Origin: an uncultured Maribacter sp.
GTDB taxonomy: Bacteria; Bacteroidota; Bacteroidia; Flavobacteriales; Flavobacteriaceae
Direction: 5' to 3'
DNA: 64,000 nt
NCBI GenBank assembly: GCA_947504045.1
Contig: CANNFY010000003.1
Coordinates: 310,001-374,000, forward strand
The first letter of the stretch is position 1. Each line of letters begins with the position of its first letter. The notes under the pieces were generated by a model, which had not been told where the DNA came from, ran no database searches, and saw only the letters and a program-made list of their open reading frames with translations. Shown in pieces: positions 64 to 63,099 of this stretch. The translations under genes were made by a program, and so were the position numbers.

Positions 64-94
64 CTATTTTATATGTAAAGAATCATGATTTATA
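64..94 (+). promoter_or_regulatory. 21-bp-period direct repeat, putative PUL operator (site 1)
   Basis: Two ten-base half-sites, CTATTTTATA (64-73) and ATGATTTATA (85-94), begin exactly 21 bases apart. The same spacing and near-identical half-sites occur before six other transcription units in this window. It lies about 150 bp before the first gene of the ten-gene operon. The AraC-type binding role is inferred. Confidence 0.55.
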
Positions 95-184
95 CTTCTC
101 TAGACCTATAATTTTTACTATTGTATTTTATAGAATAAAAGGGCTTTGCTTTATAGAATAGTACTATAACAAACATTGTTAGTG

Positions 185-192
185 TAACTTTT
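185..192 (+). promoter_or_regulatory. Possible -7 promoter element
   Basis: TAACTTTT differs by one base from the Bacteroidota -7 consensus TAnnTTTG. It lies 54 bases before the ATG at 247 and downstream of operator site 1. The same octamer precedes the GH88 gene. No clear -33 box was seen. Confidence 0.35.
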
Positions 193-246
193 AGGCAATT
201 AATATCCTATCAACTTTAAAAAAATAACAGTAAAACCAATACAATA

Positions 247-1332
247 ATGAAATTGCTTTTTTTACTTTTTTTAGGAGCTATAAGCGTTTGTAACGCTCAA
301 AATTTTATTATAGATAATTTAAAGCAGGCTCCAGTAAATGGAGGTTTGCAAATGGAAGAATATTGGGTTTGGGGAAGTTCTGTAATAAAAGGAGAAGATG
401 ATAAATACCATATGTATGCTTCTAGATGGCCAAAAATGTTACCATTTCATCCGGGTTGGATGGTGGCTTCAGAAATTGTACATGCAGTGTCAGATACACC
501 AGAAGGGCCATATAAATTTAAAGATGTTGCATTAGGAGCAAGAGGCGCTCAATATTGGGACGGTAAGTCTTGTCATAACCCTAAAATAGTAAAATACAAA
601 GACACCTATATTATGTACTATATGGGCTCTACACATCCTTTTGAAGAAGTAACAAAAGAAAATGTAGCAAATTTTAATTTAAAAAGTAAATGGTGTATTG
701 CTGGCCGTTGGGGTAAACGCGTTGGTATGGCAACATCTAAAAGCCCTAACGGGCCTTGGAAACGTTTAGATAGTCCTATTTTAGAGGTAAAACCTAATTC
801 GTATTATAGTTATTTAACCTCAAATCCTTCACCATTAATAAAAGAAGACGGTTCTGTAATATTACTTTTTAAAGGAAGAAGTTATAAAAAAGATGCCATT
901 ACCCATAGCGATATGGCTATAGGAGTAGCTACAGCAAAATCTTTTGATAGTCACTATACTGTAGTAGGAGACAAGCCATTGTTTTCTATGGAGCATTTTG
1001 GAGAAATAGAAGACCCACATTTGTGGAGTGATGCTACTGGGTTTCATATGATAGCCAAAGACCAAAGAGGTTTGTTAACCGGAGGGCACGGCGATGGTGT
1101 TTTAGCACATTCTGAAGACGGAATCAATTGGGTGGTAGATAAAAATCCAAAAGCGTATACAAAAACTGTTAAATGGGATAATGGTAAAACCATAAAACAA
1201 GGACAGTTAGAACGTCCTTTTGTACTTGTAGAAAATAAAGAGCCTACGCATATCTTTTTTGCTACAATGGATGGTAGTGGCGGATTTGCTAACGGAACAA
1301 AAACATGGAATATGGTAATTCCTTTAAAGTAA
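247..1332 (+). CDS. Secreted GH43/GH117-like five-bladed propeller glycosidase
   Basis: This 361-residue protein starts with a clear signal peptide (MKLLFLLFLGAISVCNAQ), so it is periplasmic or exported. The body has the features of a five-bladed beta-propeller glycosidase: WVWGSSVIKGEDDKYHMYASRW near the N-terminus, a KYKDTYIMYYMGS blade strand around residue 120, and EDPHLW near residue 255, where GH43-clan enzymes carry acidic residues. It could be GH43-like or GH117-like; I cannot assign the exact family or substrate. It is the first gene of a ten-gene operon, 26 bp before the sugar permease, and follows operator site 1. By context it probably releases a monosaccharide from the target glycan. 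Confidence 0.7.
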   Translation: MKLLFLLFLGAISVCNAQNFIIDNLKQAPVNGGLQMEEYWVWGSSVIKGEDDKYHMYASRWPKMLPFHPGWMVASEIVHAVSDTPEGPYKFKDVALGARGAQYWDGKSCHNPKIVKYKDTYIMYYMGSTHPFEEVTKENVANFNLKSKWCIAGRWGKRVGMATSKSPNGPWKRLDSPILEVKPNSYYSYLTSNPSPLIKEDGSVILLFKGRSYKKDAITHSDMAIGVATAKSFDSHYTVVGDKPLFSMEHFGEIEDPHLWSDATGFHMIAKDQRGLLTGGHGDGVLAHSEDGINWVVDKNPKAYTKTVKWDNGKTIKQGQLERPFVLVENKEPTHIFFATMDGSGGFANGTKTWNMVIPLK

Positions 1333-1358
1333 GTAGAACAAACTAATATATAGGTAAA

Positions 1359-2684
1359 ATGAACAAAAAAATAGTATTATGGTCGATTACCGCTGCATTA
1401 GCAGGGTTTTTATTTGGTTTTGACGTTGTTGTTATTTCTGGCGCAGATAAAAAATTACAAACAATTTGGGAATCTTCAGATTCTTTTCATGGTTGGGTAG
1501 TAATGGGAGCTGCTCTCTGGGGAACAGTATTAGGTGCTATATTCGGAGGTTTTCCTACCAATAAATATGGACGAAAAAATACTTTAATTGTTATAGGTAT
1601 TTTATTTGCAGTATCTGCTGTAGGTTCTGCGTTATCTGACAATCCATATATTTTTGCTTTTGCTAGGTTTATTGGAGGTATAGGTGTGGGAGCTTCTACT
1701 ATTGCTGCACCTGCTTATATTTCAGAAATTGCTCCTGCAAAAGATAGGGGGCGTTTGGTAGCCATGTATCAATTTAATATTGTTTTTGGTATAATGATCG
1801 CTTTTCTATCCAATTACTTATTAAGTGGTATTGGAGAAAATGCATGGCGATGGATGCTTGGAGTAGAAGCTATTCCGGCTATTCTATATATATTATTTGC
1901 ACTTGGTGTTCCTAAAAGCCCAAGGTGGTTAGCATCTAAAGGTAAAATTGCAGAAGCAAAAAAAGTATTAAAAATAATAAACCCAGATGCAGATGTAGAA
2001 GACAAATTAAAAGAGCTTCAAAGTCATTCAGAAACAAGTAATAAAACAGAAACTATTTTTATGAAAAAATATAGATTTCCGTTAACCCTTGCTTTTTTAA
2101 TTGCATTTTTTAATCAATTATCAGGTATAAATGCGTTTTTATATTATGCGCCAAGAATTTTTGAAGAGGCAGGTTTGGGCGAAAGTACAGCCTTATTAAG
2201 TAGTGTGGGTATTGGTATAACGAATCTTATTTTTACCTTATTAGGAGTGTTTTTAATTGATAAACTAGGAAGAAAAACACTAATGTATTTTGGGTCCATA
2301 GGCTATATAGTTTCTTTAAGTTTAGTTGCAGCTGCTTTTTTCTTAGAATGGACAGGTATGGCTGTTCCTATTTTCTTGTTTTTGTTTATTGCAGCACATG
2401 CCATTGGGCAAGGGGCCGTAATATGGGTGTTTATATCAGAAATTTTCCCAAATCATTTACGAGCATCCGGACAAGCATTTGGTAGTTCTACACATTGGAT
2501 TTTAGCTGCAATTATACCTTCTTCTATACCTTTTCTTTTTAATCATCCTATGATAGGGCCAGGGGTTGTATTTATTGTATTTGCAGGAATGATGGTGTTA
2601 CAATTATTATTTGTTGCTCTTATGATGCCAGAAACAAAAGGTAAAACTCTAGAGGAGTTAGAAGATATTATTTTAAAAAAATAA
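1359..2684 (+). CDS. MFS sugar porter family permease
   Basis: This 441-residue inner-membrane protein has about 12 hydrophobic segments and the marks of the sugar porter branch of the major facilitator superfamily: GRKNTL after TM2, AKDRGRLVAMYQ, PKSPRWL (family consensus PESPRWL) before the central loop, GRKTLM after TM8, and PETKGKTLEELE at the C-terminus. It likely imports a monosaccharide by H+ symport into the cytoplasm after periplasmic enzymes have finished. Substrate cannot be read from sequence; fucose, galactose or a uronic acid would fit the context. It ends 5 bp before the next gene, so it is co-transcribed. Confidence 0.88.
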   Translation: MNKKIVLWSITAALAGFLFGFDVVVISGADKKLQTIWESSDSFHGWVVMGAALWGTVLGAIFGGFPTNKYGRKNTLIVIGILFAVSAVGSALSDNPYIFAFARFIGGIGVGASTIAAPAYISEIAPAKDRGRLVAMYQFNIVFGIMIAFLSNYLLSGIGENAWRWMLGVEAIPAILYILFALGVPKSPRWLASKGKIAEAKKVLKIINPDADVEDKLKELQSHSETSNKTETIFMKKYRFPLTLAFLIAFFNQLSGINAFLYYAPRIFEEAGLGESTALLSSVGIGITNLIFTLLGVFLIDKLGRKTLMYFGSIGYIVSLSLVAAAFFLEWTGMAVPIFLFLFIAAHAIGQGAVIWVFISEIFPNHLRASGQAFGSSTHWILAAIIPSSIPFLFNHPMIGPGVVFIVFAGMMVLQLLFVALMMPETKGKTLEELEDIILKK

Positions 2685-2688
2685 AAGA

Positions 2689-4215
2689 ATGAGAAGTAGC
2701 ATTTTTAATATAAACACCTCTAAGACATTTTTACTAATAAATAAATTAGTTAAAATATTTCTACTTGTATTAATTACTCTAAATTTTTCTTGTAAAGAAG
2801 AAAAAAAAGTAGGTGAAAATAAAAAGAATAATGCGCAAGAAAATACAGAACAACCCAATATAGTAGTACTGTTATGCGACGATTTAGGTTACGGCGATTT
2901 ATCGTCTTTTGGGCATCCAATAATAAAAACACCTAATCTAGATAAGTTAGCCGAAACAGGAATAAAACTTACGAATTTTTATTCTACCGCACCAGTGTGT
3001 TCGCCTTCAAGAGCGGGATTGTTAACTGGTAGAAGCCCAAATAAAGCAGGAATTTATGATTTTATTCCAGGCTTAAAAAAGAGTCCTGATAATCGTGATT
3101 TAGTGCATTTACAAGCGCACGAAAAGACCATTCCTGCCATGTTAAAATCTGTGGGGTATGCTACATGTTTAGTAGGTAAATGGCATTGCAGTTCTCGATT
3201 TAATTCTGAAGCACAACCACAACCAAACGATTTTGGTTTCGACCATTGGATGGCAACCCACAACAATGCAGGACCAAGTCATAAAAATCCTAAAAACTTT
3301 ATTAGAAATAGAAAAAAAGTAGGCGAAATAGAAGGGTTTAGTAGTCAAATTATAGTTAGTGAAGCTATAGACTGGTTAGAGAAAAAAGAAAATAAAAAAC
3401 CATTTTTTCTTGAAGTAGCTTTTCATGAGCCGCACGAACCTATTGCATCACCTGAAGATTTGGTGGAAAAGTATTTGCCACAAGCAAAAACTAGAGAGCA
3501 AGCCGAATATTTTGCAAATGTTGAAAATGTTGATATAGCTGTAGGTCGCTTGGTTAATTACTTTAAAGAGAATAATATGGAAAACACTTTAATTGTGTTT
3601 AGTTCAGATAACGGGCCAGAAACCTTATTGCGTTATGGCGAAAAAGCAAGACATTCTTACGGTTCGCCTGGCAATTTAAAAGGAATGAAATTGTGGACTA
3701 ACGAAGCTGGTTTTCGTGTGCCAGGAATCATCAATTGGTTAGGTAAAGAAACCTTTACCGGAACAACAAATAATGTGGTTTCTGCTTTAGATTATTTTCC
3801 AACTTTCGCAGTATTGGCTGGCGCCGAAACACCAAATAATTTAGATGGTGAATCCTTTACATCACTTTTACAAACGGGTGAGTTTAATAGAGAAAAACCA
3901 CTTATTTGGGCCTTTTACGATGCTATAAACGAGCGTCGTGTTGCGATGCGAAAAGGCAAATACAAAATTATGGCGCGTATTGAAGCTAACGGAGAAACCT
4001 TAGGGAAAATCCATAACCTTTACGATGGTAACGAAGCTTTAGTTAAAAACGCAGAGTTAGTAGATTTTGTGATGTTTAATTTAGAACAGGATATTAACGA
4101 ATCGGAAGATTTAAAAGATAAAGAACCTGAGGTTTTCAATACAATGAAATTGGCATTTCAAAAGGAATACAAAAAACTATTAGACGAAAGCCATATTTGG
4201 GTAAGAGCAGAATAA
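2689..4215 (+). CDS. Type I formylglycine sulfatase, lipoprotein
   Basis: This 508-residue S1-family sulfatase has an N-terminal hydrophobic stretch ending in a lipobox (LNFSC), so it is a lipid-anchored protein. Metal-binding NIVVLLCDDLGYGD follows at about residue 58. The formylglycine motif CSPSR has its Cys at residue 104, followed by the LLTGR helix. GKWHC lies near residue 164 and SSDNGPE near 305. The N-terminal leader before the hydrophobic core is long (about 20 residues) but there is no better downstream Met. It removes sulfate esters from the glycan after maturation by a sulfatase-activating enzyme that is not in this window. Sulfate position specificity is unknown. Base composition becomes visibly more GC-rich from early in this gene. 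Confidence 0.92.
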   Translation: MRSSIFNINTSKTFLLINKLVKIFLLVLITLNFSCKEEKKVGENKKNNAQENTEQPNIVVLLCDDLGYGDLSSFGHPIIKTPNLDKLAETGIKLTNFYSTAPVCSPSRAGLLTGRSPNKAGIYDFIPGLKKSPDNRDLVHLQAHEKTIPAMLKSVGYATCLVGKWHCSSRFNSEAQPQPNDFGFDHWMATHNNAGPSHKNPKNFIRNRKKVGEIEGFSSQIIVSEAIDWLEKKENKKPFFLEVAFHEPHEPIASPEDLVEKYLPQAKTREQAEYFANVENVDIAVGRLVNYFKENNMENTLIVFSSDNGPETLLRYGEKARHSYGSPGNLKGMKLWTNEAGFRVPGIINWLGKETFTGTTNNVVSALDYFPTFAVLAGAETPNNLDGESFTSLLQTGEFNREKPLIWAFYDAINERRVAMRKGKYKIMARIEANGETLGKIHNLYDGNEALVKNAELVDFVMFNLEQDINESEDLKDKEPEVFNTMKLAFQKEYKKLLDESHIWVRAE

Positions 4216-4219
4216 TTTT

Positions 4220-7030
4220 ATGATTAAAAAAGTTGCCATATTAATTTTCGTATTTACCGTCTTTTTTACTGAAGATGCCACGGCTCAATTTATTTTTCCA
4301 GATGAAATTAGCAGAGCGCATCCACGTTTAATTTCGTCGGAAGTTAATCGCGAGGCTATTCTTAAAGCTATAGACACTTCGCAGGCAATTAAAACCTCTT
4401 TTGAAGCTATTAAAAATGATGTTTCAAAATACGTAAATCAGTTTAAAACAGATAAAGATTGGTTGTCGTCTCGTCTGCAAATGTATTGGAAAAGTCATGC
4501 GACAAACGTATTTGTAAATGGGGAATTTTATGCCTATGCATCAGGAAAAGCACCAGTCCCAACAGTTCGGTTTACAGGACAACGCGATTATGTTACCGAT
4601 TATAAAACACCAAAAATTGAAGATGTAAAACCGTATTTAGAAGATAAACGCGGCCTATTTCTTCAAAATAAAAATACAGATAAATGGGAATGGGTAAGCC
4701 CTGAAAAAACCGGACGTGTTATAGAAAATACCAACGAAAATATTATGAAAATTGCCCGTAATGCGGCATTAGTTTATTTTGTTGAAGGCGATAAAGCGTA
4801 TGCTAAATTAGCGCAACATGTTTTTGATGTGTACATGCAAGGTTTGTATTTTAGAAATGAGCCTGTTGATTTAGAACATGGCAATATTCAAAACGTAATT
4901 GGCTTAACTTCTTTTCAAGTGATTAAAGAAAATATTGTTGATGAGTTAGCCGAAACGTATGACTTTCTGTATGATTACATACAAGAAAATCATAAAAGTA
5001 GAAACGATATTTACACGACCTCGTTAAAAAAACTTGCCGAAATCATCATCAAAAATGGCGTACCAGATAATAACTGGAATTTACATCAAGCCAATAAAGT
5101 AATTGAAATTGCTTTGGTTTTAGATAATAATAAGGCTTATGAAGATGGAAAAGGCTGTCAATATTATTTAAATCGTGTATTTAACGAATCGGAAGCAAGA
5201 CAATGGTCTGTTAACGATGTTTTAAATTATGGCTACGATCAAAACAATGGTGTTTGGAACGAAAGTGCCGGTTATGCTTTAAGCGTTGCCGAAGGTTTTA
5301 CACATTTAGCCGGTGTAATTGAGGAAGCTTTAGGTGTCGATATTATGCCAAATATGCCAGTAATTCCAAAGGCAGTAAAAGTAATGCCGCAATATTTATA
5401 TCCTAATAAAAGTATTGTTGCTTTTGGTGATTCGCATTATGGCGAATTAAAAAGCCAGCCTTTTTTAGATGTAATTAGTAACGCCCAAAAATTCAATAAA
5501 AAAACAGAAGAAACTACTTTTACTAGCATGCTTTTTATGCTGAAGGATAAACAGGAACTACTCACTAAAAAAGCACCAAAAAACGCATTTAATGCTTTTG
5601 TTTACAACACTAACGTAACATTAAATAAAACCATTGAAGCTGCAGATTTAACGGATTATGCAACGGCGTCGTTTTACGCGCCAAATGTAAGTTGGTTGGC
5701 TATGCGAAATGGCATGGATAAGCACAACGGATTAATGATTTCGCAAGCGGCATCTTTAGGAAACCATGCACATTCTAACGGAATTGCCATGGAATTGTAT
5801 GGTAAAGGCTATATTTTGGCTCCCGAAGGAGGTCGTGGTTCTAGTTATTTTAGAGATGATTATCGTCAATATTATTCGCAATTTCCTGCGCACAACACCG
5901 TATCGGTAAACGGGAAATCGCAGTACAATAAAATGCGTAGTTATTATGCCTTCGAAGTGAATACTATGTATCCGGCTTCCGAAAGAAAATCAGGTTATTA
6001 CCCAAATATTAATTTCTCCGATTTATACTTTAATGAGCCAAGTACCAACGCCGACCAAAATAGAGTAATGAGTATTGTAAGAACAGGAGAAACATCTGGT
6101 TATTACATCGATATTTTTAGGTCCAAAACTAAAGCAGATACTGCAAAATATCACGATTACTTCTATCATAATTTAGGACAAGAGTTAGAGTTTTCAACCT
6201 TAAATAATCCAACTATTTCTCTTAAACCATCGTCAAAGTTAAATTCTAAATCAGGAAATATTAAAGCTTATGATTTTTTGTATGATGAAACTTCAACACG
6301 CGTAGAAACACCATTTAAAGCTATTTATAATTTGTCGATTAATAAAGAAAATGTTCAGATGAATATGTGGATGAATGCGGATGAAAATAGAGAGCTTTTT
6401 AAAGTAAAGGCGCCACATTCTGAAGCCTTTCGTAAGATACTTCCCGAGAATATTGAAAAAGCACCATTGTTAACTACAGTAGTTCGACAATATGGAGAAG
6501 CTTGGAATAACCCTTTTGTAGCGGTTTACGAGCCTTCAACCAATAAAGAACCTGCCACAATTAAAGCTGTGGAAACCTTTAAAATAGATTCAAAACCTAG
6601 TTTTATTGGTGTAAAAATAGAAAGCAAAACAAACCGGGTAGATTATGTGTTTTCTTCCACTACTCAAGAAGTTTGTCAGCATCAATCTATTGATTTTACA
6701 GGAACGTTTGGCGTGTTAACACAAGAAGGTAATGAAACGACGTTGTTTATTGGCGCAGGTAAAAAAATAAGTTTTAACGGCTACACCATAAACATTCTTG
6801 GTAAAAAATCGAGTTCGGCCACATTGGTTACAGGCGAGCAGTTTAAACTAACATGCAATGATGCCATTTTACTTACCGTTCCAGACACTTTTAAAAAAGG
6901 TGCTATGGTTTTAAATATTGGATTTAAACAATTAAACGGAAGCAGAAAAACAATAGATGGAAAGAAAGTGGTTCAATTTAAAGTGCCACCTTCAAATTAT
7001 CAAAATATATCAATTAAACTAAAAGCATAA
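4220..7030 (+). CDS. Large heparinase II/III-fold polysaccharide lyase (paralogue 1)
   Basis: This 936-residue secreted protein has a signal peptide ending near ATAQ. It shows an N-terminal alpha/alpha-toroid and a C-terminal antiparallel beta-sheet domain of the heparinase II/III type. Candidate active-site elements are intact: NNWNLHQ near residue 284, a Tyr in NESAGY near 349, the His pair in GNHAHSNG near 514, and AHNTV near 557. Enzymes of this fold beta-eliminate next to uronic acids in GAGs, alginate or ulvan. The exact PL family is not assigned here. Three close paralogues lie in this window (at 10719, 13387 and 28496). It sits 5 bp after a sulfatase and 5 bp before GH97, so it is co-transcribed with both. 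Confidence 0.82.
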   Translation: MIKKVAILIFVFTVFFTEDATAQFIFPDEISRAHPRLISSEVNREAILKAIDTSQAIKTSFEAIKNDVSKYVNQFKTDKDWLSSRLQMYWKSHATNVFVNGEFYAYASGKAPVPTVRFTGQRDYVTDYKTPKIEDVKPYLEDKRGLFLQNKNTDKWEWVSPEKTGRVIENTNENIMKIARNAALVYFVEGDKAYAKLAQHVFDVYMQGLYFRNEPVDLEHGNIQNVIGLTSFQVIKENIVDELAETYDFLYDYIQENHKSRNDIYTTSLKKLAEIIIKNGVPDNNWNLHQANKVIEIALVLDNNKAYEDGKGCQYYLNRVFNESEARQWSVNDVLNYGYDQNNGVWNESAGYALSVAEGFTHLAGVIEEALGVDIMPNMPVIPKAVKVMPQYLYPNKSIVAFGDSHYGELKSQPFLDVISNAQKFNKKTEETTFTSMLFMLKDKQELLTKKAPKNAFNAFVYNTNVTLNKTIEAADLTDYATASFYAPNVSWLAMRNGMDKHNGLMISQAASLGNHAHSNGIAMELYGKGYILAPEGGRGSSYFRDDYRQYYSQFPAHNTVSVNGKSQYNKMRSYYAFEVNTMYPASERKSGYYPNINFSDLYFNEPSTNADQNRVMSIVRTGETSGYYIDIFRSKTKADTAKYHDYFYHNLGQELEFSTLNNPTISLKPSSKLNSKSGNIKAYDFLYDETSTRVETPFKAIYNLSINKENVQMNMWMNADENRELFKVKAPHSEAFRKILPENIEKAPLLTTVVRQYGEAWNNPFVAVYEPSTNKEPATIKAVETFKIDSKPSFIGVKIESKTNRVDYVFSSTTQEVCQHQSIDFTGTFGVLTQEGNETTLFIGAGKKISFNGYTINILGKKSSSATLVTGEQFKLTCNDAILLTVPDTFKKGAMVLNIGFKQLNGSRKTIDGKKVVQFKVPPSNYQNISIKLKA

Positions 7031-7034
7031 ACTA

Positions 7035-9026
7035 ATGAACCTAATTATGAAAAAAGTGGTGCTAGTCATTTGTGTGTTGTCAATTTTTAGTAGTTGCAAA
7101 ACACAGGAAACTATAGCGTTATTATCACCGGATGCCTCAAAAAAAATGGTGTTTTTGAATGGTGAAAATAAAAATGACATTACCTTTTCGGTGTTTTATG
7201 GTAACCAACAAGTAGTGGAAACCTCGGTATTGGAGTTAGTTGCAGATGCGCTTGATTTTAAAGGTGAAGTTGTTGTAGAAAATATCGAGCATACATCAGT
7301 TAATACCTCTTGGAAATCTAATTTTTCAGAATTAAGCAGTATTCCAGACCATTACAATCAAATAAAAATTTCTTTAAAACAAGGCGAAGCAAAATTAAAT
7401 ATTATTGCCAGAGCTTATAACGAAGGTGTGGCATTTGCTTATGAAATTCCGAAGCAGAATAATGTTGAAGACCTAAAATTAAGCGAAAACATCAATTATA
7501 ATTTTACGGAAGATTACTCAGTATGGTCAACTCCTAAAAGAGAAAAAGGGAAATTAACCGCACAAGGAGAGTACAAAAAAATACCGTTAAGCCAATTACA
7601 AGAAGGTTGCGAAAGACCATTGTTAATTGAAGTTGCTGATAGTGTAAAAATTGCCCTAGCCGAAGCTCGATTGGTAGATTATGCGCGCTTGAGTTATAAC
7701 AAAGGCACAGCATCAAAATTTAGCATTCAATCGTCTTTAGATGGAAAAATACAAGACACCAAACAAGACCTTGTAACGGGGGCTATTATTTCAGAACGCA
7801 ATGATAAGGGCTTCAAAATTCATCAAAAATTACCAATTATGTCGCCTTGGCGCGTGGTAATGATGGGGAATAGTTATGCCGATTTATTAGAGAAAAACTA
7901 CATCATTCAAAATTTAAATCCACCATCTGCAATCGATGATTCTTGGGTAGAGCCTGGTAAAGTGTTGCGTGAAACTACGCTAACAACCCAAGGCGGATTT
8001 GCGGCTATAGATTTTGTGGCAAGCCATAATATGCAATATGTGCATTTTGATGCCGGTTGGTATGGCAATGAAATGGATAACAAATCAGATGCGACAACCG
8101 TAACACTAGACCCAAAGCGTTCTAAAGGCCCTTTTGATATTGAAGCTATTTGTAAATATGCCAAAGAAAAAGGTGTAAAAGTAATGCTATACATAAACCG
8201 TAGAGCTTTAGAAGGAAAGGTTGATGAGGTTTTTCCTGTACTTAAAAAATGGGGCGTTTCTGGTGTAAAATATGGTTTTGTTCGTGTGGGCGATGAGAAC
8301 GCCACAGCTTGGATGCACGAAGCGGTTAAAAAAGCAGCAAAGTACAAGTTGGTTATAGATATTCATGATGAATACAGACCAACAGGGTTTTCAAGAACCT
8401 ATCCAAATTTATTAACGCAAGAAGGGATTCGTGGCGATGAAGAGTCTGTGCCTAACGAACATACGTTAATTACCATGTTTACAAGAATGTTGGCTGGTGC
8501 TGCCGATAATACCGTGTGTTATTACAACAAACGCGTGGATAAAATGGGGTCGCATGCCTCACAAATGGCAAAAACAGTATGCGTTTTTAGTCCGTTACAA
8601 TTTTTATACTGGTACGATAAAGCACCTGCGGCACCTGTAAAAGACGACGGACTTTGGGGCGATACTAAAACCATTGGTAACGAGCCAGAGCTAGAGTTTT
8701 TTAACAACGTACCAACCACTTGGGACGAAACTAAAGTACTGCAGGCCGAAATTGGTGAAATAGGTGTTATTGCAAGAAGAAAAGGAAACGACTGGTTTGT
8801 GGGTTGTATAAACGGAACAAAAGCACAACAAGTTACGGTAGATTTTTCATTTTTAGAGTCTAACCAAAATTACGATGCCAAGTTATATACCGATGACGAA
8901 ACGGTAAATACAAGAACCAAAGTAAAAATTACAGAATCAGAATTAACCAATCAATCAAAATTAAATTTATCGGTTAAAGCCAATAACGGTTTTGTAATGC
9001 ATATCAAAAAACAACAATCAAACTAA
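7035..9026 (+). CDS. GH97 glycosidase, lipoprotein (copy 1)
   Basis: This 663-residue GH97 family protein has a lipoprotein signal with Cys at residue 21 (IFSSC). An alternative start at 7047 (MKKVV) would give a shorter leader with the same lipobox. The N-terminal super-beta-sandwich covers about residues 25-290. A catalytic barrel follows, with VHFDAGWYGNEMD near 335, KYGFVRVGDE near 412 and IDIHDEYRPTG near 442, then a C-terminal beta domain. Asp445, after His in the last motif, is where I expect the nucleophile in retaining GH97 members (alpha-galactosidase branch); inverting alpha-glucosidases have Gly there. GH97 enzymes are Ca-dependent. It likely removes an alpha-linked hexose side group. 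Confidence 0.88.
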   Translation: MNLIMKKVVLVICVLSIFSSCKTQETIALLSPDASKKMVFLNGENKNDITFSVFYGNQQVVETSVLELVADALDFKGEVVVENIEHTSVNTSWKSNFSELSSIPDHYNQIKISLKQGEAKLNIIARAYNEGVAFAYEIPKQNNVEDLKLSENINYNFTEDYSVWSTPKREKGKLTAQGEYKKIPLSQLQEGCERPLLIEVADSVKIALAEARLVDYARLSYNKGTASKFSIQSSLDGKIQDTKQDLVTGAIISERNDKGFKIHQKLPIMSPWRVVMMGNSYADLLEKNYIIQNLNPPSAIDDSWVEPGKVLRETTLTTQGGFAAIDFVASHNMQYVHFDAGWYGNEMDNKSDATTVTLDPKRSKGPFDIEAICKYAKEKGVKVMLYINRRALEGKVDEVFPVLKKWGVSGVKYGFVRVGDENATAWMHEAVKKAAKYKLVIDIHDEYRPTGFSRTYPNLLTQEGIRGDEESVPNEHTLITMFTRMLAGAADNTVCYYNKRVDKMGSHASQMAKTVCVFSPLQFLYWYDKAPAAPVKDDGLWGDTKTIGNEPELEFFNNVPTTWDETKVLQAEIGEIGVIARRKGNDWFVGCINGTKAQQVTVDFSFLESNQNYDAKLYTDDETVNTRTKVKITESELTNQSKLNLSVKANNGFVMHIKKQQSN

Positions 9027-9035
9027 AAAAAGACT

Positions 9036-10703
9036 ATGAAACTAATATTAAAATGTGTTACTGTACTGCTTTGTTTTGCGGTAATAGCTTGTAAAAACAA
9101 AGAAACCAAACAAGAACCTGTTGTAAAAAAAGAACTTCCGGCTAAGCGACCAAACATCATTTTTATGATGTCTGACGATCATGCCTATCAAGCCATTAGC
9201 GCCTACAGCAATCATTTAATCGAAACACCAAATATAGATCGTATTGCAGACGAGGGTATAAAGTTTACCAACGCCTGTGTGTCTAACTCTATTTGTGCAC
9301 CGTCAAGAGCAACTATTTTAACAGGTAAGCATTGTCATATTCATGGTAAAGTAGATAATGTTTTTCCTTTTGATGAATCGCAAACCACCTTTCCGCAGTT
9401 AATGCAACAAGCCGGTTATAAAACCGCTATGTTTGGTAAATTACACTTTGGAAACAACCCGAAAGGTGTTGATGAATTTAAAATTTTACCAGGACAAGGC
9501 CGCTATTACAACCCTATTTTTAATACAAATGATGGACAAATTACGGTTGAAGGTTATGTAACCGATATTATTATGGACATGACCTTGGAGTGGTTAGAAG
9601 AAAATAAAGAAGACGACCAACCATTTATGTTGTTTTCTATGCAAAAAGCACCGCACAGAGAGTGGTTGCCTGCACCGCGCCATTTTAAAGAATATACCAA
9701 GAAAACCTTTGTAGAGCCAGAAACGTTATTCGATGATTATGAAGGTAGAGGAAGTGCTGCTAAAACTGCCGAAATGAATTTATTAAAACATATGAATTGG
9801 GCCGGAGATGCTAAAATTTATCCAGAACTTATGAAAGAACTCGGTTTAAAAGACGAGTCTGGTTGGGATTTAGAAGCTTTTGAACGCGAAGTTGGTGCCA
9901 TGAACGAAACACAACGTGCCGTTTGGGATTCTACTTACGGACCGGTAATGGAAGATTTTAAAAGCAAATTTCCTGAAATGGACGATAAAGCCCTCATGAA
10001 ATGGCGCTACCAACGTTACATGCAAGATTATTTAGGTTGCATTGCTTCGGTTGATGAAAACGTAGGGCGTTTACTAGATTATTTAGAGGATTCTGGTCTA
10101 GATGAAAATACCATGATTATTTATACATCCGATCAAGGATTTTACCTTGGTGAACACGGTTGGTTCGATAAGCGTTTTGTGTACGATGAATCATTTAAAA
10201 CTCCATTATTAATTAAATGGCCAAATGTTATCGAGCCAGGAATTACAAACACCGAAATGGTTCAAAATTTAGATTTTGCACAAACCATTTTAGAAGCTGC
10301 TAAAATTGAAGCGCCAAGCGACATGCAAGGCGAAAGTTTAATACCGTTGCTTTTAGGAAATCTGGAAGAGTGGACGCGCGATGCCGTGTATTACCATTAC
10401 TATGAGTATCCTGGAATACACATGGTGAAAAGACATTACGCTATAATTACACAAGAATACAAACTGGCACATTTTTATTATGATGTTGATGAGTGGGAAT
10501 TGTATGACCGTAAAAAAGACCCACAAGAAATGAAAAACGTTATTAACGATCCGGCCTATGCCGATGTGGTTGTGAAATTAAAAGAACAATTAAAAGAGAT
10601 GCGTGCGCATTATGGTGATAGCTCGGAGTTAGACCAAGAGATTCTAAGAAAGTATTTAGAAGCTAAAGACAATCCAGATATAGAAACTGTGCCGTTGCAC
10701 TAA
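9036..10703 (+). CDS. Sulfatase, N-acetylglucosamine-6-sulfatase-like (S1_11-like)
   Basis: This 555-residue lipoprotein (lipobox AVIAC, Cys19) has the type I sulfatase fold. The formylglycine motif is SICAPSRA with Cys87. The surrounding pattern (MSDDHAYQAISAY, TPNIDRIADEGIKF, FPQLMQQAGYKTAMFGKLHFG, then ILPGQGRYYNP) resembles the S1_11 group of GlcNAc-6-O-sulfatases and mucin-desulfating sulfatases. In those enzymes the following motif is usually GKWHL; here it is GKLHFG, so specificity may differ. TSDQGFYLGEHGWFDKRF near residue 365 is a typical second metal and substrate loop. The gene belongs to the first operon, between GH97 and a lyase-like protein. A hexosamine-6-sulfate target is possible but not proven. 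Confidence 0.88.
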   Translation: MKLILKCVTVLLCFAVIACKNKETKQEPVVKKELPAKRPNIIFMMSDDHAYQAISAYSNHLIETPNIDRIADEGIKFTNACVSNSICAPSRATILTGKHCHIHGKVDNVFPFDESQTTFPQLMQQAGYKTAMFGKLHFGNNPKGVDEFKILPGQGRYYNPIFNTNDGQITVEGYVTDIIMDMTLEWLEENKEDDQPFMLFSMQKAPHREWLPAPRHFKEYTKKTFVEPETLFDDYEGRGSAAKTAEMNLLKHMNWAGDAKIYPELMKELGLKDESGWDLEAFEREVGAMNETQRAVWDSTYGPVMEDFKSKFPEMDDKALMKWRYQRYMQDYLGCIASVDENVGRLLDYLEDSGLDENTMIIYTSDQGFYLGEHGWFDKRFVYDESFKTPLLIKWPNVIEPGITNTEMVQNLDFAQTILEAAKIEAPSDMQGESLIPLLLGNLEEWTRDAVYYHYYEYPGIHMVKRHYAIITQEYKLAHFYYDVDEWELYDRKKDPQEMKNVINDPAYADVVVKLKEQLKEMRAHYGDSSELDQEILRKYLEAKDNPDIETVPLH

Positions 10704-10718
10704 AACGCAATTTTATTT

Positions 10719-13382: not shown

Positions 13383-13386
13383 GAAA

Positions 13387-16176: not shown

Positions 16177-16188
16177 ATAAAAAGAAAA

Positions 16189-19350: not shown

Positions 19351-19351
19351 T

Positions 19352-23814: not shown

Positions 23815-23833
23815 AGTTTTTAATGTAGTCACC

Positions 23834-35895: not shown

Positions 35896-35919
35896 CAGAT
35901 AGAAGTATTCAGTTAGTAT

Positions 35920-47274: not shown

Positions 47275-47413
47275 TTGTTTATATATTCTGACTTAAATTT
47301 ATTTATTTAAAACTTTTAGAGCAATTTCTTTTTAGAAACCCCTTTTCATCTCTTAGCATTAAGTATTTGCCCTATCTTATAGCTTTAAGAAAGCTGTGTT
47401 TTTAAAAAGGTTA

Positions 47414-47444
47414 ATTAGTTATATATAATGAACCATAAGTTATA
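47414..47444 (+). promoter_or_regulatory. 21-bp-period direct repeat, putative PUL operator (site 7)
   Basis: ATTAGTTATA (47414-47423) and ATAAGTTATA (47435-47444) begin 21 bases apart and share nine of ten bases, the best internal match of the set. They lie 76 bp before the sulfatase gene at 47521. The core is AGTTATA rather than GTTTATA. Confidence 0.6.
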
Positions 47445-57057: not shown

Positions 57058-57068
57058 ATAGCAATTAT

Positions 57069-57443: not shown

Positions 57444-59228
57444 TTAATATCCGGGATTTTGTAAAAGAGCTTCATTTAAACCTGTTTGTGATGTAGGTAA
57501 TGGGAATAAATAATTATCTCTAGAGAAATTACGAGTTGATGCAGGTTGTATAACTAAACACTCTCTAGTATCACCATTTCCTACTACTGTACTTTCCGTA
57601 CCATAATTATAATCTCCAGTAAATAAACTTGGATCGCTTTCGTATACTGTACCTTCAACTACAGCTCCATAAACAGCTTCTCCTAATACATCTTCAGCTA
57701 CTCCCCAACGTCTTAAATCAGCAAATCTTGAAGCGCCTTCAGCAAATAATTCAATAGCACGCTCTCTTCTAATTTCTTCACCAATATCCATGTTATTTGT
57801 AGTTAGAAAAGCATTGCTAATAGGAGGTAAACCTGCTCTAGCTTTAATTAAATTAATAGATGCATCCATTTCAGTATCTGTTAAGCTACCATTTAACTCA
57901 TATAATGCTTCTGCATACATTAAGTATACTTCAGCTAAACGTAGTAATGGAATGTCATAACTTTCGGTTTCTGTTGCTCTATATGCGTCAGCGGTACCCC
58001 AATTCCAACTCATGAATTTTGAATTGTCATATCCGTAATTAGTGCCTCCGTCTAAAACATAATCTCCAGTTTGTGGTATTACTCCTAAAGATGCTACATC
58101 TGTAAAGTAAGCAGTTAACCTATAGTCTCTATTCTGATATTCATCCTGTGTTTCAGTATAACCTTGGAATAAAGGTGATTGATTTATAGGCAGCCCGTCT
58201 GAGCACAAAAATAAATCCATCATTTTTCTACTTGGCTTAGTTCTTCCTGCGTATACGTGACTTACAAGTGTATTTGCTTGTCTAAAAGTAAAGTCATATT
58301 TACCATACAAAATAAATTCTTTGTTAGTGGCTTTGTCTAAACCTCCAGGGTTAGAACCTCCATCTTCCAAGTTAAATAAGAAATTTGAACTTAAGTTATT
58401 TAAAACATCATTATAATCCCATAACTCAAAAGTTCCAGAATTCATTACAGATTGTGTAAGTGTAACTACTTCTTGTAAATATGGTGTTATATTAGATGCA
58501 TCATATCCAGCACTACCAGCGCCAGTACTTGTTCCATCTCCATCTGTTGTGGTACCTACATATTTCATCCAGGTAGCTTCATGTAATAATACTTCCGCTT
58601 TAAAAGCCATAGCAGCTTCTTTACTAAATTTACCTTTGTCTTCTGAACCAATTGAAGTTTCGTTAGGTAATCCAGCAATAGCATCATCTAAATCTGCTAT
58701 AATTTGTGCTGTAACTTCATATCTACTATTACGAGCGTTATATAATTCTTCAGAATCTACATCTAATGGTCTAGTAACCAATGGCACTCCTCCATATCGT
58801 TGCAGTAAAAAGAAATATTGCCAAGCTCTATGCATTTTACTTGCAGCTACATATTCTACAATACTACCTTCTCCATTATAAGTTTCAGCTCTATCTAATA
58901 AAAGGTTTATATCTCTTATAGCTACGTAAGTATCTGTGTAATAGTCATCATCTACTGGTGCTAAAGTTTCTCCTCTTGCATACTCTTGCATGCCACTTCC
59001 TTCTTCGTAACCAATTAAATCGGATCCATGATCAGAAAAAATTCCTTGATCACCCCAACCCATTAAGTTGGTGTAAAATCTATTAGATCCTGTTAAAAAG
59101 TGCTCTGCTTCATTATAATACACATCATCTGTGATGGAAGCAGGTGGGGTTAGATCTATAAAATCATCTGTACAAGATGCAAAGCATACCATAATACATG
59201 GCAAAACTATATTTATTATTTTTTTCAT
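57444..59228 (-). CDS. susD: SusD-like outer-membrane glycan-binding lipoprotein
   Basis: This 594-residue lipoprotein (lipobox CFASC) is a SusD/RagB family member. The N-terminal part has DDFIDLTPPASITDDVYYNEAEHFLTGSNRFY, then VAIRDINLLLDRAETY and a TPR-like region (SKMHRAWQYFFLLQRYGGVPLVTRPL). The C-terminal part has the usual LRLAEVYLMYAEALYELNG and IRRERAIELFAEGASRFADLRRWG helices. SusD proteins form the lid of the SusC transporter and capture oligosaccharides at the cell surface. The gene starts 33 bp after susC and ends before a terminator. It is the only SusD in the window, so it is presumably the intake for the whole locus. Confidence 0.97.
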   Translation of the reverse strand: MKKIINIVLPCIMVCFASCTDDFIDLTPPASITDDVYYNEAEHFLTGSNRFYTNLMGWGDQGIFSDHGSDLIGYEEGSGMQEYARGETLAPVDDDYYTDTYVAIRDINLLLDRAETYNGEGSIVEYVAASKMHRAWQYFFLLQRYGGVPLVTRPLDVDSEELYNARNSRYEVTAQIIADLDDAIAGLPNETSIGSEDKGKFSKEAAMAFKAEVLLHEATWMKYVGTTTDGDGTSTGAGSAGYDASNITPYLQEVVTLTQSVMNSGTFELWDYNDVLNNLSSNFLFNLEDGGSNPGGLDKATNKEFILYGKYDFTFRQANTLVSHVYAGRTKPSRKMMDLFLCSDGLPINQSPLFQGYTETQDEYQNRDYRLTAYFTDVASLGVIPQTGDYVLDGGTNYGYDNSKFMSWNWGTADAYRATETESYDIPLLRLAEVYLMYAEALYELNGSLTDTEMDASINLIKARAGLPPISNAFLTTNNMDIGEEIRRERAIELFAEGASRFADLRRWGVAEDVLGEAVYGAVVEGTVYESDPSLFTGDYNYGTESTVVGNGDTRECLVIQPASTRNFSRDNYLFPLPTSQTGLNEALLQNPGY

Positions 59229-59261: not shown

Positions 59262-62200
59262 TTATAAGGATATTTTTAGTCCAAGAGCCCATGTACGCAT
59301 AAATGGATAGGTTGCATTATTTGAACCTGAACCAGATTCTGGGTCATAACCATCTTTTACTTTTGTAAACTCAAATAAATCATTTCCAGAAAAGTAAACA
59401 CGAACCTTATCTATAGGAGTGTTTCCAATTTTTAAGTCATTAAAATTATATCCTAGAATTAATGATTTTAACCTTATGTATCTGTTGTTTTGTAACATAA
59501 AATCTTTATTCGTATAGTTCCAAGTAGTTACATTTCTTTGTGTTGTAGATCTTGGAAATTCTGCATCTGGGTTATCAGGTGTCCATGTAGTTCCTAACCA
59601 AGCGGTAGATTGGTTTTGCCATATTTGTTGAAAAGGAGATGCAAAATATCCTGTTCTAAGAATATTTTGATTAATTACACCTTGAAAGAAACTACTAAAA
59701 TCCCAATTTTTATATTTTAAATCTAAGTTAAAACCATACGTGTAGTGTGGAGAATTGTCTCCGTGGTATACTAAGTCATCTGTATCAATAATGCCATTTT
59801 CATCATAATCTACAATTCTTGTATCACCAGGAACTAAGCCAGCAGCGGTACCTTGATCAGGTACAATACCACTTCCTCCATAGGTTGCATAATATGCATC
59901 TACCTCTGCCTGTGTTTGGAAAAAACCATCGGTTTTGTATAGGTAGAATGAGTTAATAGGTTTTCCTTCAATTACTTCTTCAGCGTTATTATCACTAGAG
60001 TCTACTAAGTTTAAACCAGCTTGTATAGCTTCAGCTCCGTCATAGGAAACAACTTTGTTTCTAGAATCACTCATATTAGCTCCTATACTTAGGTCTAATT
60101 CTCCAATTTGTGTGTTGTATCCTAATTGTATTTCCCAACCTTTGGTTTCTAAAGTACCAGAGTTAGTTGTTGGCGCGTTAGTTCCAAGTATATCTGGATA
60201 AACCAATTGAACTAGCATATCACTATTTTTTTGTTCAAAAAGATCTACAGAACCGTATATTTTATTGTTAAAAAGTCTAAAATCTAGACCAACTTCTTTT
60301 GTTCCTACTCGTTCCCAAGTTGTTGTGTCACTAAATAAAGAACTTGCTCTAGTGGTTACTTGCTGTCCAGCGTTAGTTTGGCCAAAAACAGTTGTTCCAA
60401 AACCTACTGTAGACAAGTATCCAAAGTTACCAAACCCAGAAGTACTACCTAATTCTCCATAACCTCCACGTAGTTTTAAGAAAGATATAGTATTACTGTC
60501 TTTTAGAAAATCTTCTGCACTAATTACCCAACCACCAGAAGCACTAAAGTAATTAGACCATTTTTTTCCTTCTGCAAATCTTGAAGAACCATCTCTTCTA
60601 CCTTGTAATTCTAAAAGATATTTTTCTTTAAAGTTATAGTTTAAACGTCCAATATAACCAAAAGCACCCCAAGTGTTACCACCACCTTCTGTTACAATAG
60701 CTTGGTCTGTAGCTCCTAAATCTAAATCATAGACACCATAGTCTACAAAACCATTTCTTCTGGCTCTAAGCCCATTGCTTATATTTTTTTCAGCTTCAAT
60801 AGCTATTAACCCAGATACATTATGATTTCCAAAAGCATTATTATAATTTAAAGTAGTCTTATAGTTTTTATAAGTAACCGTTCCTGTTTCTTCTTCTATA
60901 TATGTGTTACTTGCATCGTTAATTGTTGTTGCAAAGTTTCCATCCCAATCATATAATGGAACAGATAGTTGATAAGCTTGATCTTCACTATTTTGTTTGC
61001 TTATCGCATATGAAGCAGTAATATTTAGTTTGTCAGTTAATTTATAGTCTAATAATGCAGCAATTTTAAATTGTTCATCAATTTGATTATCTCTACCACC
61101 ATCTATAACTTGTGCTACAGCATTTCTTCTACCTGCTATATTAACACCTCCAAAAACAGAATAGTATTGTCCTTGATCATTATAAGAAGGGAATAATGGT
61201 GCATCGTATGTTGCTGCATCTCTGGCTAAACCTCCAATAGGCCCAGAAATATTTCTATGAAAATAAGTTACGTTTGTGTTTAGACTTAATCTATCAGAAA
61301 CGTCAACATTGTAATTTAATGAGAAGTTATATCTTTCAGAAGAATCGTCAGCTATCTTTAATCCACCCACGTTTTCATCGTAACCAGCAGAAATTCTAAA
61401 ATTACTTTTTTCTGATCCACCAGATACACTAATGTTATGTTGACTAGAGTAAGAGTTGCCAAACATTTCATCAAATCTATTTCCTTCAGCTAACCAAACT
61501 CTTCCGTTAATAGGTAAATCATAATAACCTTCTTCTCCAGCTGCAATTCTTTCTAATGTTTCTCGATTATCCCAGAAGAAATATCTTGGACTCTTACCTG
61601 CTTCTATATCAGCGTCTACAGCTTCTAAATATAATTGACCGTATTGTTCCATTGTTGGAGATGGTGGACGTATACCAATTGTACCCATACGAGTAATAGT
61701 ACTAATATCAACCTTAACATCACCTTTTCCTTTTTTTGTTGTAACTAATATTACACCACCAGCTGCACGCGAACCGTATACAGATGCGGATCCACCTTTT
61801 AATACACTAATGTTTTCAATGTCATTAGGGTTCATGTCTGTAAATGAAGCTGTATTTATTGCAGGAATACCGTCTATAACAATAAGTGGATCTATACCGT
61901 TTACAGAAGAAACACCTCTAATAGCAAAGTCTAATTCTTCATTTCCTGGTCTAGAAGATGTTCTAGTAATAACTAACCCAGGAGTTCTACCTTGTAAAGC
62001 TAAAGCAGGACTACCAACAGCAATATCTTCAAAAACTTCAGACTTTACTTGTTCTACAGATCCAGTTAAGGTTTCCTTTTTAGAAGTACCATAACCAACA
62101 ACTACAACTTCATCAAGTGCAGTTAAATCGGATTCTAAGGTTACATTAATAGTACTTTGGTTTCCTACAGTAATTTCTTTAGTAACAAATCCTAAATAAG

Positions 62201-62489
62201 AAAAGACTAATACACCGTTAGTAGGAACCTTAATACTATAATTTCCATCAAAATCTGAAACAGTACCAGTAGAAGTTCCTTTTACTACTATGTTAACACC
62301 AGGTATAGGCAAGTTATCATCTGCACCTACGATTGTTCCTGTTACAGTTTTGTTTTGCTCCACTTTAATAGAAGTATTTAAAGGAGCCGCATGTAATTGC
62401 GATAAAGAGCCACAAATTAGAAAACCCACTATCCAAAATAGGCTTCCAAAGATTTTCAGATTAATCTGAATGTGTCTTAGTTTAGTCAT
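59262..62489 (-). CDS. susC: SusC-like TonB-dependent outer-membrane transporter
   Basis: This 1075-residue protein has a signal peptide (to LSQLHA), then a carboxypeptidase-regulatory-like domain (about residues 46-125: VTGTIVGADDNLPIPGVNIVVKGTSTGTVSDFDGNYSIKVP). The TonB box DEVVVVGYGTSKKETLTGSV follows, then the plug (GLVITRTSSRPGNEELDFAIRG, GSASVYGSRAAGGVILVTTKKG) and a 22-strand barrel ending in a final aromatic-rich strand (TWALGLKISL). It imports oligosaccharides with SusD using TonB energy. It is transcribed opposite to the enzyme operons. I could not find the 21-bp-period operator upstream of it. Confidence 0.97.
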   Translation of the reverse strand: MTKLRHIQINLKIFGSLFWIVGFLICGSLSQLHAAPLNTSIKVEQNKTVTGTIVGADDNLPIPGVNIVVKGTSTGTVSDFDGNYSIKVPTNGVLVFSYLGFVTKEITVGNQSTINVTLESDLTALDEVVVVGYGTSKKETLTGSVEQVKSEVFEDIAVGSPALALQGRTPGLVITRTSSRPGNEELDFAIRGVSSVNGIDPLIVIDGIPAINTASFTDMNPNDIENISVLKGGSASVYGSRAAGGVILVTTKKGKGDVKVDISTITRMGTIGIRPPSPTMEQYGQLYLEAVDADIEAGKSPRYFFWDNRETLERIAAGEEGYYDLPINGRVWLAEGNRFDEMFGNSYSSQHNISVSGGSEKSNFRISAGYDENVGGLKIADDSSERYNFSLNYNVDVSDRLSLNTNVTYFHRNISGPIGGLARDAATYDAPLFPSYNDQGQYYSVFGGVNIAGRRNAVAQVIDGGRDNQIDEQFKIAALLDYKLTDKLNITASYAISKQNSEDQAYQLSVPLYDWDGNFATTINDASNTYIEEETGTVTYKNYKTTLNYNNAFGNHNVSGLIAIEAEKNISNGLRARRNGFVDYGVYDLDLGATDQAIVTEGGGNTWGAFGYIGRLNYNFKEKYLLELQGRRDGSSRFAEGKKWSNYFSASGGWVISAEDFLKDSNTISFLKLRGGYGELGSTSGFGNFGYLSTVGFGTTVFGQTNAGQQVTTRASSLFSDTTTWERVGTKEVGLDFRLFNNKIYGSVDLFEQKNSDMLVQLVYPDILGTNAPTTNSGTLETKGWEIQLGYNTQIGELDLSIGANMSDSRNKVVSYDGAEAIQAGLNLVDSSDNNAEEVIEGKPINSFYLYKTDGFFQTQAEVDAYYATYGGSGIVPDQGTAAGLVPGDTRIVDYDENGIIDTDDLVYHGDNSPHYTYGFNLDLKYKNWDFSSFFQGVINQNILRTGYFASPFQQIWQNQSTAWLGTTWTPDNPDAEFPRSTTQRNVTTWNYTNKDFMLQNNRYIRLKSLILGYNFNDLKIGNTPIDKVRVYFSGNDLFEFTKVKDGYDPESGSGSNNATYPFMRTWALGLKISL

Positions 62490-63068
62490 AAAAATGTTGT
62501 TTTAAGTTAGTAATCATTAAATAGATTTCAATCACCCCGAAATCGTTAAAGCAATGTTAAAAACTATTAAGAGAAGGTATTGTAAATTATTATTCAAAGT
62601 GTATAAAATATAGTTCATATTAATAATTTATGCCTTAATTAATCATTAAATTCATTTTTATAGGGGTTTATAATTATTAAAAACATAAAATTGACTTAGT
62701 TGTAAATTAGTTAAAATCTATTAAAAAAACACTTATATATGGTTATATAATTAGGTGTAAATTGTACATGTATTTAGTAGCCTTTTTATAAAGTATAGTT
62801 TGTATTATTTTCTATTAAATGCTCTTAAGTACTATTTTAATTGACCTTATGGGTGTTTGGTAATAAATATTTTCGATTTTTTAATCTATTTTTTAGGTAT
62901 AATTAATAGGTATAAATCTTATGCTTTTATATGATACTGCTTTTTATTTTGGTTAATTTTTTAGAGACTAAAATTCTTTATCTACTATAAATACCATGTT
63001 AAACCATAATATCTCTTATTTGACCATTATTAGGCTTTAAAACCTATAAAAAAAAGCATAAAAGGATT

Positions 63069-63099
63069 ATGTTTTATAGTCTTTGAATGATAAGTTATT
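63069..63099 (+). promoter_or_regulatory. 21-bp-period direct repeat, putative PUL operator (site 8)
   Basis: ATGTTTTATA (63069-63078) and ATAAGTTATT (63090-63099) begin 21 bases apart. The first half fits sites 1 and 5 and the second fits site 7. It lies 107 bp before the GH88 gene. Confidence 0.5.

What the first reader, a model, noticed from the sequence alone, without database searches (positions are those of the whole stretch)
64..63099. A 21-bp-period direct-repeat operator shared by the transcription units of the locus
Pairs of about 10-bp words (near ATnnTTTATA, with an AGTTATA variant) begin exactly 21 bp apart at 64/85, 23834/23855, 25931/25952, 28375/28396, 35920/35941, 47414/47435 and 63069/63090, plus a weak pair at 20851/20872. 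Each pair lies roughly 50-155 bp before the first gene of a transcription unit, on the sense strand. Spacers differ while half-sites and period are kept, as expected for a protein-binding site touching one DNA face over two helical turns. Established comparison: AraC of E. coli binds direct repeats araI1/araI2 with the same 21-bp period. Inference: one HTCS or AraC-type regulator controls the locus. The sequence is AT-rich, so single half-sites are weak evidence; the shared period and position carry the weight.
Basis: partly seen in the sequence, partly recalled or inferred. Interest (0 to 1): 0.85.

Follow-up and report, generated by a model that had tools for sequence, protein, structure and literature searches.

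The report
Shared activator site of an algal-sugar gene cluster
A marine bacterium uses one repeated DNA landing site, placed at a nearly set distance before each promoter, so that a single sugar-sensing membrane protein can probably switch on a large algal-sugar digestion cluster; this type of switch was already known, but this one and its spacing to the promoter are mapped here.

Summary
All eight 21-bp pairs exist, including the 'weak' one at 20851. The spacer is not free: it holds a conserved TGAAY box, so the operator is two 16-bp half-sites (TGAAYnATAATTTATA) with a 5-bp gap. The regulator is best assigned to a 1390-aa HTCS that ends 34 bp before the window. A matrix from this window scores 16 or more in 24 of 24 loci of HTCS orthologues and 0 of 56 other loci. 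A reverse search finds strong sites in exactly the 6 of 149 genomes that carry the orthologue. The neighbouring AraC gene fits less well. In 61 of 77 sites a sigma-A -7 box (TAnnTTTG, at most 1 mismatch) starts exactly 21 bp after the operator, which puts the operator at about -70 to -34, as in class II activation. HTCS operators as 21-bp direct repeats are known from Bacteroides (PMC3878776). This is a new, well-mapped member; I found no report of the operator-to--7 register. Binding and expression are untested.

The parts
58..94 (+). operator 1 (two 16-bp half-sites, 5-bp gap); -7 box TACTATTG at 116-123; before the operon starting at 247
   Evidence: score 26.5 with a model from other genomes
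23828..23864 (+). operator 3; -7 box TAATATTG at 23886-23893; before the GH97 gene at 23922
25925..25961 (+). operator 4; -7 box TAACTTTG at 25982-25989 (register 1 bp shorter); before the heparinase-II/III-like gene at 26014
   Evidence: the orthologous gene has a site in G008 and G009
28369..28405 (+). operator 5; poor -7 box CAATATTG (2 mismatches) at 28426-28433; before the gene at 28496
35914..35950 (+). operator 6; -7 box TAATTTTA at 35972-35979; before the sulfatase gene at 36049
47408..47444 (+). operator 7; -7 box TAATTTTC at 47467-47474 (register 1 bp longer); before the sulfatase gene at 47521
   Evidence: the orthologous gene has a site in G021 and G009
   Evidence: site at the same place before the syntenic susC of G008 and G018, weaker (16.1) in G009
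63063..63099 (+). operator 9; -7 box TATAATTG at 63121-63128; before the GH88-like gene at 63207
   Evidence: the orthologous gene has a site in G008, G018, G068, G009 and G021
247..20716 (+). ten-gene unit behind operator 1: unknown 361 aa, sugar transporter, two sulfatases, two heparinase-like proteins, GH97, unknown 887 aa, esterase/beta-helix protein, GH29 fucosidase
59262..62489 (-). susC-like TonB-dependent transporter gene behind operator 8
57444..59228 (-). susD-like gene, same unit

Best explanation
The repeats are the operators of one hybrid two-component system (HTCS) encoded directly upstream of the window (C3:305794-309966; Reg_prop/Y_Y_Y sensor, HisKA, HATPase, receiver, AraC-type HTH_18). 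Each operator is a direct repeat of a 16-bp half-site TGAAYnATAATTTATA with a 5-bp gap (period 21). Inferred mechanism: the periplasmic sensor detects an oligosaccharide from a sulfated, probably fucose-containing algal glycan; phosphotransfer frees the AraC-type domains; two of them bind the same DNA face two helical turns apart at about -70 to -34. The downstream half-site sits where the -33 element would be, and the protein recruits sigma-A polymerase to a mostly sub-consensus -7 box 21 bp further down. Shown by sequence: the anatomy, the co-occurrence with this HTCS, and the register to the -7 box. Inferred: binding, activation, ligand.
For: HTCS position and domains. Home-trained matrix: 24 of 24 loci of HTCS orthologues (44-72% identity over the sensor half, GC 26-44%) have a hit at 16 or more; 0 of 56 loci with sensor relatives of 34% identity or less do (5 of 56 have one at 13 or more). 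Five 80-kb orthologous regions: 14 hits at 18 or more against a summed mean of 0.08 from permuted columns, many before orthologous units. In G021 the orthologous cluster lies about 1.4 Mb from the HTCS and still has 8 sites of 17 or more, so control is in trans. Reverse test, not conditioned on the HTCS: operator plus -7 pattern at 2 mismatches or fewer in 6 of 149 genomes, exactly the 6 with an orthologue of 55% identity or more; the other 143 genomes have 22 hits, all at 3 mismatches, in 21 genomes, against 18 reversed-control hits in all 149 (1 in 1.4e10 for that split if genomes were independent). DNA-binding domains: orthologues 55-76% identical to the home one, paralogues 28-41%. Promoter register: TAnnTTTG with at most 1 mismatch starts at +52 in 61 of 77 sites, in at most 3 at any other position from +40 to +65. 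0 of 77 sites lie more than 30 bp inside an ORF of 90 aa or more. Period: pair sums of 18 or more in the 24 loci number 40 at 21 bp and at most 8 at any other spacing from 16 to 69. A test without any matrix also gives 21 in the 24 loci (29 against at most 6).
Against: No binding, footprint, start-site or expression data. Operators 4, 5 and 7, and in all 16 of the 77 sites, lack a -7 box (at most 1 mismatch) at exactly +52. One upstream gap (34009-34110) has no site, and the HTCS gene has no convincing site of its own. The L058 region of the same genome, beside another HTCS whose DNA-binding domain is only 33% identical, has a good hit (21.9; 25.8), so specificity between paralogues is not absolute or that gene belongs to the same regulon. 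The 24 loci were chosen by the HTCS, and the 56 controls differ in taxon and GC. The matrix-free test also had its highest sum over offsets at 21 bp in 160 kb of background (42, next 34 at 25 bp), so 21-bp repeats are not unique to this locus. A missing -33 box is weak evidence, since that element is faint in F. johnsoniae promoters in general (PMC6847099, passages). Activation rather than repression rests on position alone.
Confidence: 0.88

Rival explanations
1. The operator belongs to the separate AraC-type regulator (292 aa, cupin-like plus HTH_18) encoded divergently next to the HTCS (C3:304636-305514).
For: It is adjacent and of a family that binds direct repeats; clear orthologues (73-77%) exist in G009 and G068, which have the sites. 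The seven same-genus genomes that lack the sites do not count against it: in each, the gene that one search listed at 55-59% (in G005 one of two) matches the other AraC gene, on contig 1, at 77-84%.
Against: Of the 6 genomes with strong sites, its orthologue is clear in 3 (home, G009, G068), doubtful in 2 (G008 49%, G018 51-55%, about as close to the contig-1 AraC) and absent in G021, where no relative exceeds 37% although 12 composite hits were found; the HTCS orthologue is in 6 of 6. In the five orthologous 80-kb regions a relative near 50% lies in only two, G008 and G018. It sits beside a sugar-acid/fucose-type catabolic cluster of its own.
Confidence: 0.06
2. The repeats are a general AT-rich upstream element of flavobacterial promoters, not a specific operator.
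For: A -7 box follows at fixed distance; AT-rich motifs at -18 and -28 are reported for F. johnsoniae (PMC6847099, passages).
Against: No hit at 2 mismatches or fewer in 143 of 149 genomes; one hit in 200 kb elsewhere in the same genome; kept in regions of 45-48% GC; the best-conserved column is a G.
Confidence: 0.02
3. The operator is shared by several HTCS paralogues of this genome that cross-regulate the cluster.
For: A good hit lies just after the paralogous HTCS on contig 1, with a like direct repeat and a weak -7 box (2 mismatches) at the same distance.
Against: The HTH domains differ (33-34% identity to the home one); 11 of 12 paralogue loci have no hit of 17 or more; the seven same-genus genomes, which have other HTCS-like matches but no orthologue, have no site at 2 mismatches or fewer.
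Confidence: 0.04

Closest known systems
Predicted HTCS operators of Bacteroides (Ravcheev et al. 2013, PMC3878776; passages only)
   Same: Direct repeats, average distance 21 bp, read there as dimers on one DNA face two turns apart; the HTCS_Man motifs are given as two 16-bp sites with a 5-bp spacer, the same layout as here.
   Different: Different host family (Flavobacteriaceae here) and regulon; the half-site letters could not be compared (logos not held); the passages seen do not describe a fixed distance to the -7 box.
E. coli AraC at araI1/araI2
   Same: Direct repeat with 21-bp period; the downstream half-site abuts or overlaps the upstream core element, as in class II activation.
   Different: Soluble one-component regulator; sigma-70 -35/-10 promoter; no membrane HTCS.
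Bacteroides HTCS BT4124 and BT4663 (PMC11253607; passages only)
   Same: HTCS with measured DNA binding (EMSA) to susCD promoters; supports the proposed biochemistry.
   Different: Other promoters and hosts; that work concerns control of binding by the receiver domain.
SusR-type operators (PMC3878776)
   Same: Direct repeats before carbohydrate operons.
   Different: Repeat distance 67 or 77 bp, not 21.

Membership tests
HTCS direct-repeat operator | two like half-sites in direct orientation, about 21 bp apart | tested here: met
HTCS direct-repeat operator | cognate HTCS with AraC-type HTH encoded in or next to the locus | tested here: met
HTCS direct-repeat operator | motif conserved before orthologous units in genomes with the orthologous HTCS and not above control level elsewhere | tested here: met
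HTCS direct-repeat operator | binding by the HTCS response-regulator part | not testable with these tools
   needs EMSA or DAP-seq
One-component AraC operator (the neighbouring AraC gene) | site occurrence follows the AraC orthologue | tested here: inconclusive
   clear orthologue in 3 of 6 genomes with sites, doubtful in 2, absent in G021; the same-genus genomes do not discriminate
SusR operator | half-site distance 67 or 77 bp | tested here: not met
   distance is 21 bp; family figure
Bacteroidota sigma-A (-33/-7) promoter | -7 box TAnnTTTG downstream of the site | tested here: met
   61 of 77 at exactly +52 with at most 1 mismatch; only 7 of 77 perfect there
Bacteroidota sigma-A (-33/-7) promoter | -33 element (TTG/TTTG) | tested here: not met
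   no position from +20 to +44 has TTG in more than 5 of 77 sites; no column above 0.16 bits from +31 to +43

The most novel reading that the evidence does not exclude
HTCS proteins in general act as class II activators whose downstream half-site replaces the -33 element at a fixed 21-bp distance from a deliberately weak -7 box (often TAnnATTG). If so, a single composite pattern, half-site repeat + 21 bp + TAnnWTTG, could be used to read HTCS regulons straight from Bacteroidota genomes and to assign orphan gene units to their sensors.
Probability: 0.45. Interest if true: 0.55.

Novelty: new member of a known kind. Interest (0 to 1): 0.42.

Why it matters
It ties one sensor to nine transcription units of a large marine sulfated-glycan cluster and gives a motif that tracks that sensor across at least six genera of one family, even when cluster and sensor are 1.4 Mb apart. 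The near-fixed register to the -7 box is a simple, testable rule for how this HTCS, and perhaps others, activate transcription; it may help to predict regulons and to build inducible promoters in harmless laboratory Bacteroidota.

Tried and rejected
Bare 10-bp words at up to 3 mismatches as a genome-wide test: no enrichment; the TGAAY box is needed. Chance AT-richness: rejected. AraC neighbour as the regulator: disfavoured but not excluded. My first argument, that same-genus genomes have AraC relatives at 55-59% without sites, fell when one search showed that these genomes hold the orthologue (77-84%) of the other AraC gene on contig 1; I therefore raised this rival from 0.04 to 0.06 and lowered the main reading from 0.90 to 0.88. 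General promoter element: disfavoured. Triple half-site arrays as a rule: only 1 of 77 upstream and 2 of 77 downstream score 8 or more, control about 0.1. The excess at 47 bp consists mostly of one strong half-site of a real site and a weak partner near the core promoter, and was dropped. Whether other HTCS families show the same register: inconclusive. One gene of 1082 aa near a paralogue in G008 (L240, gene 15664) has a 10-of-16 self-match at 21 bp at the right distance from TAAATTTG, and one in home (L059, gene 4584) 11 of 16; no more can be said.

Rows dropped before counts: the 77 sites are those scoring 17 or more after removal of identical contexts (for example L125, the same contig as G009) and of hits within 60 bp of the 5' end or 200 bp of the 3' end of a stretch. 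The home matrix was trained on 8 sites (20851 left out). Close relatives remain among the 77 (for example two Maribacter loci), so the counts are not independent events. In one search only four candidates per genome were scored fully and the match list was cut; absence of the orthologue rests on the best E-value listed for each genome.

Papers: PMC3878776, PMC11253607, PMC12125979, PMC7366714, PMC10994844, PMC12596196, PMC9723704, PMC6847099, PMC5698469: only passages found by term were seen. Others were seen in search listings only. That the operator-to--7 register is unreported rests on searches of one open-access library and on those passages; most subscription papers and preprints are not in it.
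Full report
SETTING. The window (C3:310001-374000 of a 3.46-Mb genome, 33% GC in the window) is a carbohydrate cluster: sulfatases, GH29, GH95, GH97, GH31, GH28, GH116-like and GH88-like enzymes, heparinase-II/III-like proteins, esterases and a susCD pair. One 'same family' genome, G009, has a contig of the same length (295,433) as a Flavicella sediminum record, so the host is in that family (Flavobacteriaceae, name recalled); its species is not known to me. Fucosidases, sulfatases and a fucose/sugar-acid type catabolic cluster just upstream suggest a sulfated, fucose-containing glycan; this is inference.

OBSERVATION. All eight pairs are present with a 21-bp period. Leave-one-out scores place the seven good sites among the top four of 127,933 window positions. 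Aligning them with a ninth site found before susC on the minus strand shows that the so-called spacer has a conserved TGAAY box whose G is the best-conserved column of the logo (8 of 8; 73 of 77). The operator is two 16-bp half-sites TGAAYnATAATTTATA separated by 5 bp. Genome-wide at up to 3 mismatches, the 10-bp words alone give no excess (74 against 86 reversed); with TGAAY 9 hits, 8 in the locus, 1 in the control; with the -7 box 7 hits, all in the locus, 0 in the control.

REGULATOR. No regulator was seen among the window proteins scanned, and the genome-wide HTH_18 search has no hit inside the window. A 1390-aa HTCS ends 34 bp before the window on the same strand. Full-length orthologues at 55-65% exist in five genomes of five other genera; the next best listed matches are about 38% over the full length, or up to 43% over a part. 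In 80 kb around each, the window's matrix gives 14 hits of 18 or more against a summed mean of 0.08 with permuted columns. Sites lie before orthologous units: the divergent susC/GH88-like pair in G008 and G018, and the GH88-like gene in G068. In G021 the orthologous cluster lies about 1.4 Mb from the HTCS; most of its genes with a match in the home region are 60-85% identical, and it has 8 sites of 17 or more. In a named collection, 24 of 24 orthologue loci (44-72%) have a hit of 16 or more and 0 of 56 more distant relatives do. The 56 differ in taxon and GC, so the paralogue loci (11 of 12 without a hit of 17 or more) and the reverse test are the better controls. Reverse test: the composite pattern was sought in 149 genomes chosen by kinship only. 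Six have hits with 2 mismatches or fewer, and these are the 6 with the orthologue. The other 143 have 22 hits, all at 3 mismatches, in 21 genomes; the reversed pattern has 18 hits in all 149. With the TGAAY pattern without the -7 box, the seven same-genus genomes give 14 hits, all at 3 mismatches, against 13 reversed.

THE ARAC NEIGHBOUR. Its orthologue is clear in home, G009 and G068, doubtful in G008 and G018, and missing in G021, which has many sites. The HTCS orthologue is in all six. The seven same-genus genomes cannot be used against the AraC gene: each holds a 77-84% orthologue of another AraC gene on contig 1, which is what one search had picked up at 55-59% (in G005 besides one further gene at 59%). 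The AraC reading is therefore less likely but not excluded.

PROMOTER REGISTER. The columns downstream of the operator were not used in training. In 77 sites a box TAnnTTTG with at most one mismatch starts at +52 in 61; no other position from +40 to +65 has more than 3. Only 7 are perfect at +52, and at the -8 base 46 of 77 have A instead of T, so most boxes are sub-consensus. F. johnsoniae start-site data place the first T of this box at -12 (PMC6847099, passages), which puts the operator at about -70 to -34. No -33 element is seen between operator and box, but that element is reported to be faint in F. johnsoniae anyway. The arrangement is that expected of a class II activator; the comparison with araI2 is recalled, not tested. 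The 'weak' 20851 pair has a box in exact register and is probably functional. In the home locus operators 4 and 7 are off by 1 bp and operator 5 has a poor box.

INDEPENDENCE. In 200 kb of background it returns one, L058:10843(-), just after another HTCS and before a dehydrogenase gene. A test without any matrix finds period 21 at the right distance from a -7 box in the 24 orthologue loci (29 against at most 6), but its sum over offsets is also highest at 21 in 160 kb of background (42, next 34), and it is unclear in 12 paralogue loci.

NOVELTY. Direct repeats at an average of 21 bp, including two 16-bp sites with a 5-bp spacer, are published as predicted HTCS motifs in Bacteroides (PMC3878776, passages), and HTCS binding to susCD promoters has been measured (PMC11253607, passages). 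This is therefore a new member of a known kind. I found no description of the fixed operator-to--7 register in the searches named, within one open-access library. Whether it is general is open.

LIMITS. Everything is sequence evidence; binding, direction of control and ligand are inferred.

Noticed in passing
L058:10843-10879 (-), home contig C1 near 390843: A strong operator-like direct repeat just downstream of another HTCS (C1:390953-395020, HTH only 33% identical) and upstream of a dehydrogenase gene, near GH29 and GH92 genes; either a second HTCS operator of like design or a distant member of this regulon.
   Followed up: partly
-7 boxes, +52 to +59 of the 77 sites: Most -7 boxes differ from TAnnTTTG; 46 of 77 have A at -8 (TAnnATTG type), perhaps a built-in need for the activator.
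   Followed up: partly
window 247-1332, 10719-13382, 34111-35895: Three proteins of the cluster (361, 887, 594 aa) without a Pfam hit; the first two have close relatives (about 70-78%) in the orthologous clusters of G021 and G009. Candidate unknown glycan-active proteins.
   Followed up: no
window 50975-53206: A DUF7133/HEAT protein with a weak cytochrome-c match inside a sulfatase-rich cluster; unexpected company for a glycan cluster.
   Followed up: no
home genome C3:299755-305514 (L055:9755-15514): A sugar-acid catabolic cluster (altronate-dehydratase-like, FAA hydrolase, SDR, FMN-dependent dehydrogenase) with its own AraC gene lies divergently beside the HTCS, fitting a non-phosphorylating fucose-type pathway (pathway recalled).
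   Followed up: partly
G001-G007 compared with G000: The seven same-genus genomes searched show no HTCS orthologue and no strong sites, while other genera of the family have both: the cluster is patchy, as if gained by transfer.
   Followed up: partly
L120:14592-14613, L124:4455-4476, G021 C1 near 3707103: A few loci have three tandem half-sites at 21-bp steps.
   Followed up: partly
home contig C1:381801-382658 (L058:1801-2670): A second AraC gene, 55% identical to the one beside the HTCS and conserved at 77-84% in all seven same-genus genomes searched; easily mistaken for an orthologue of the first.
   Followed up: yes
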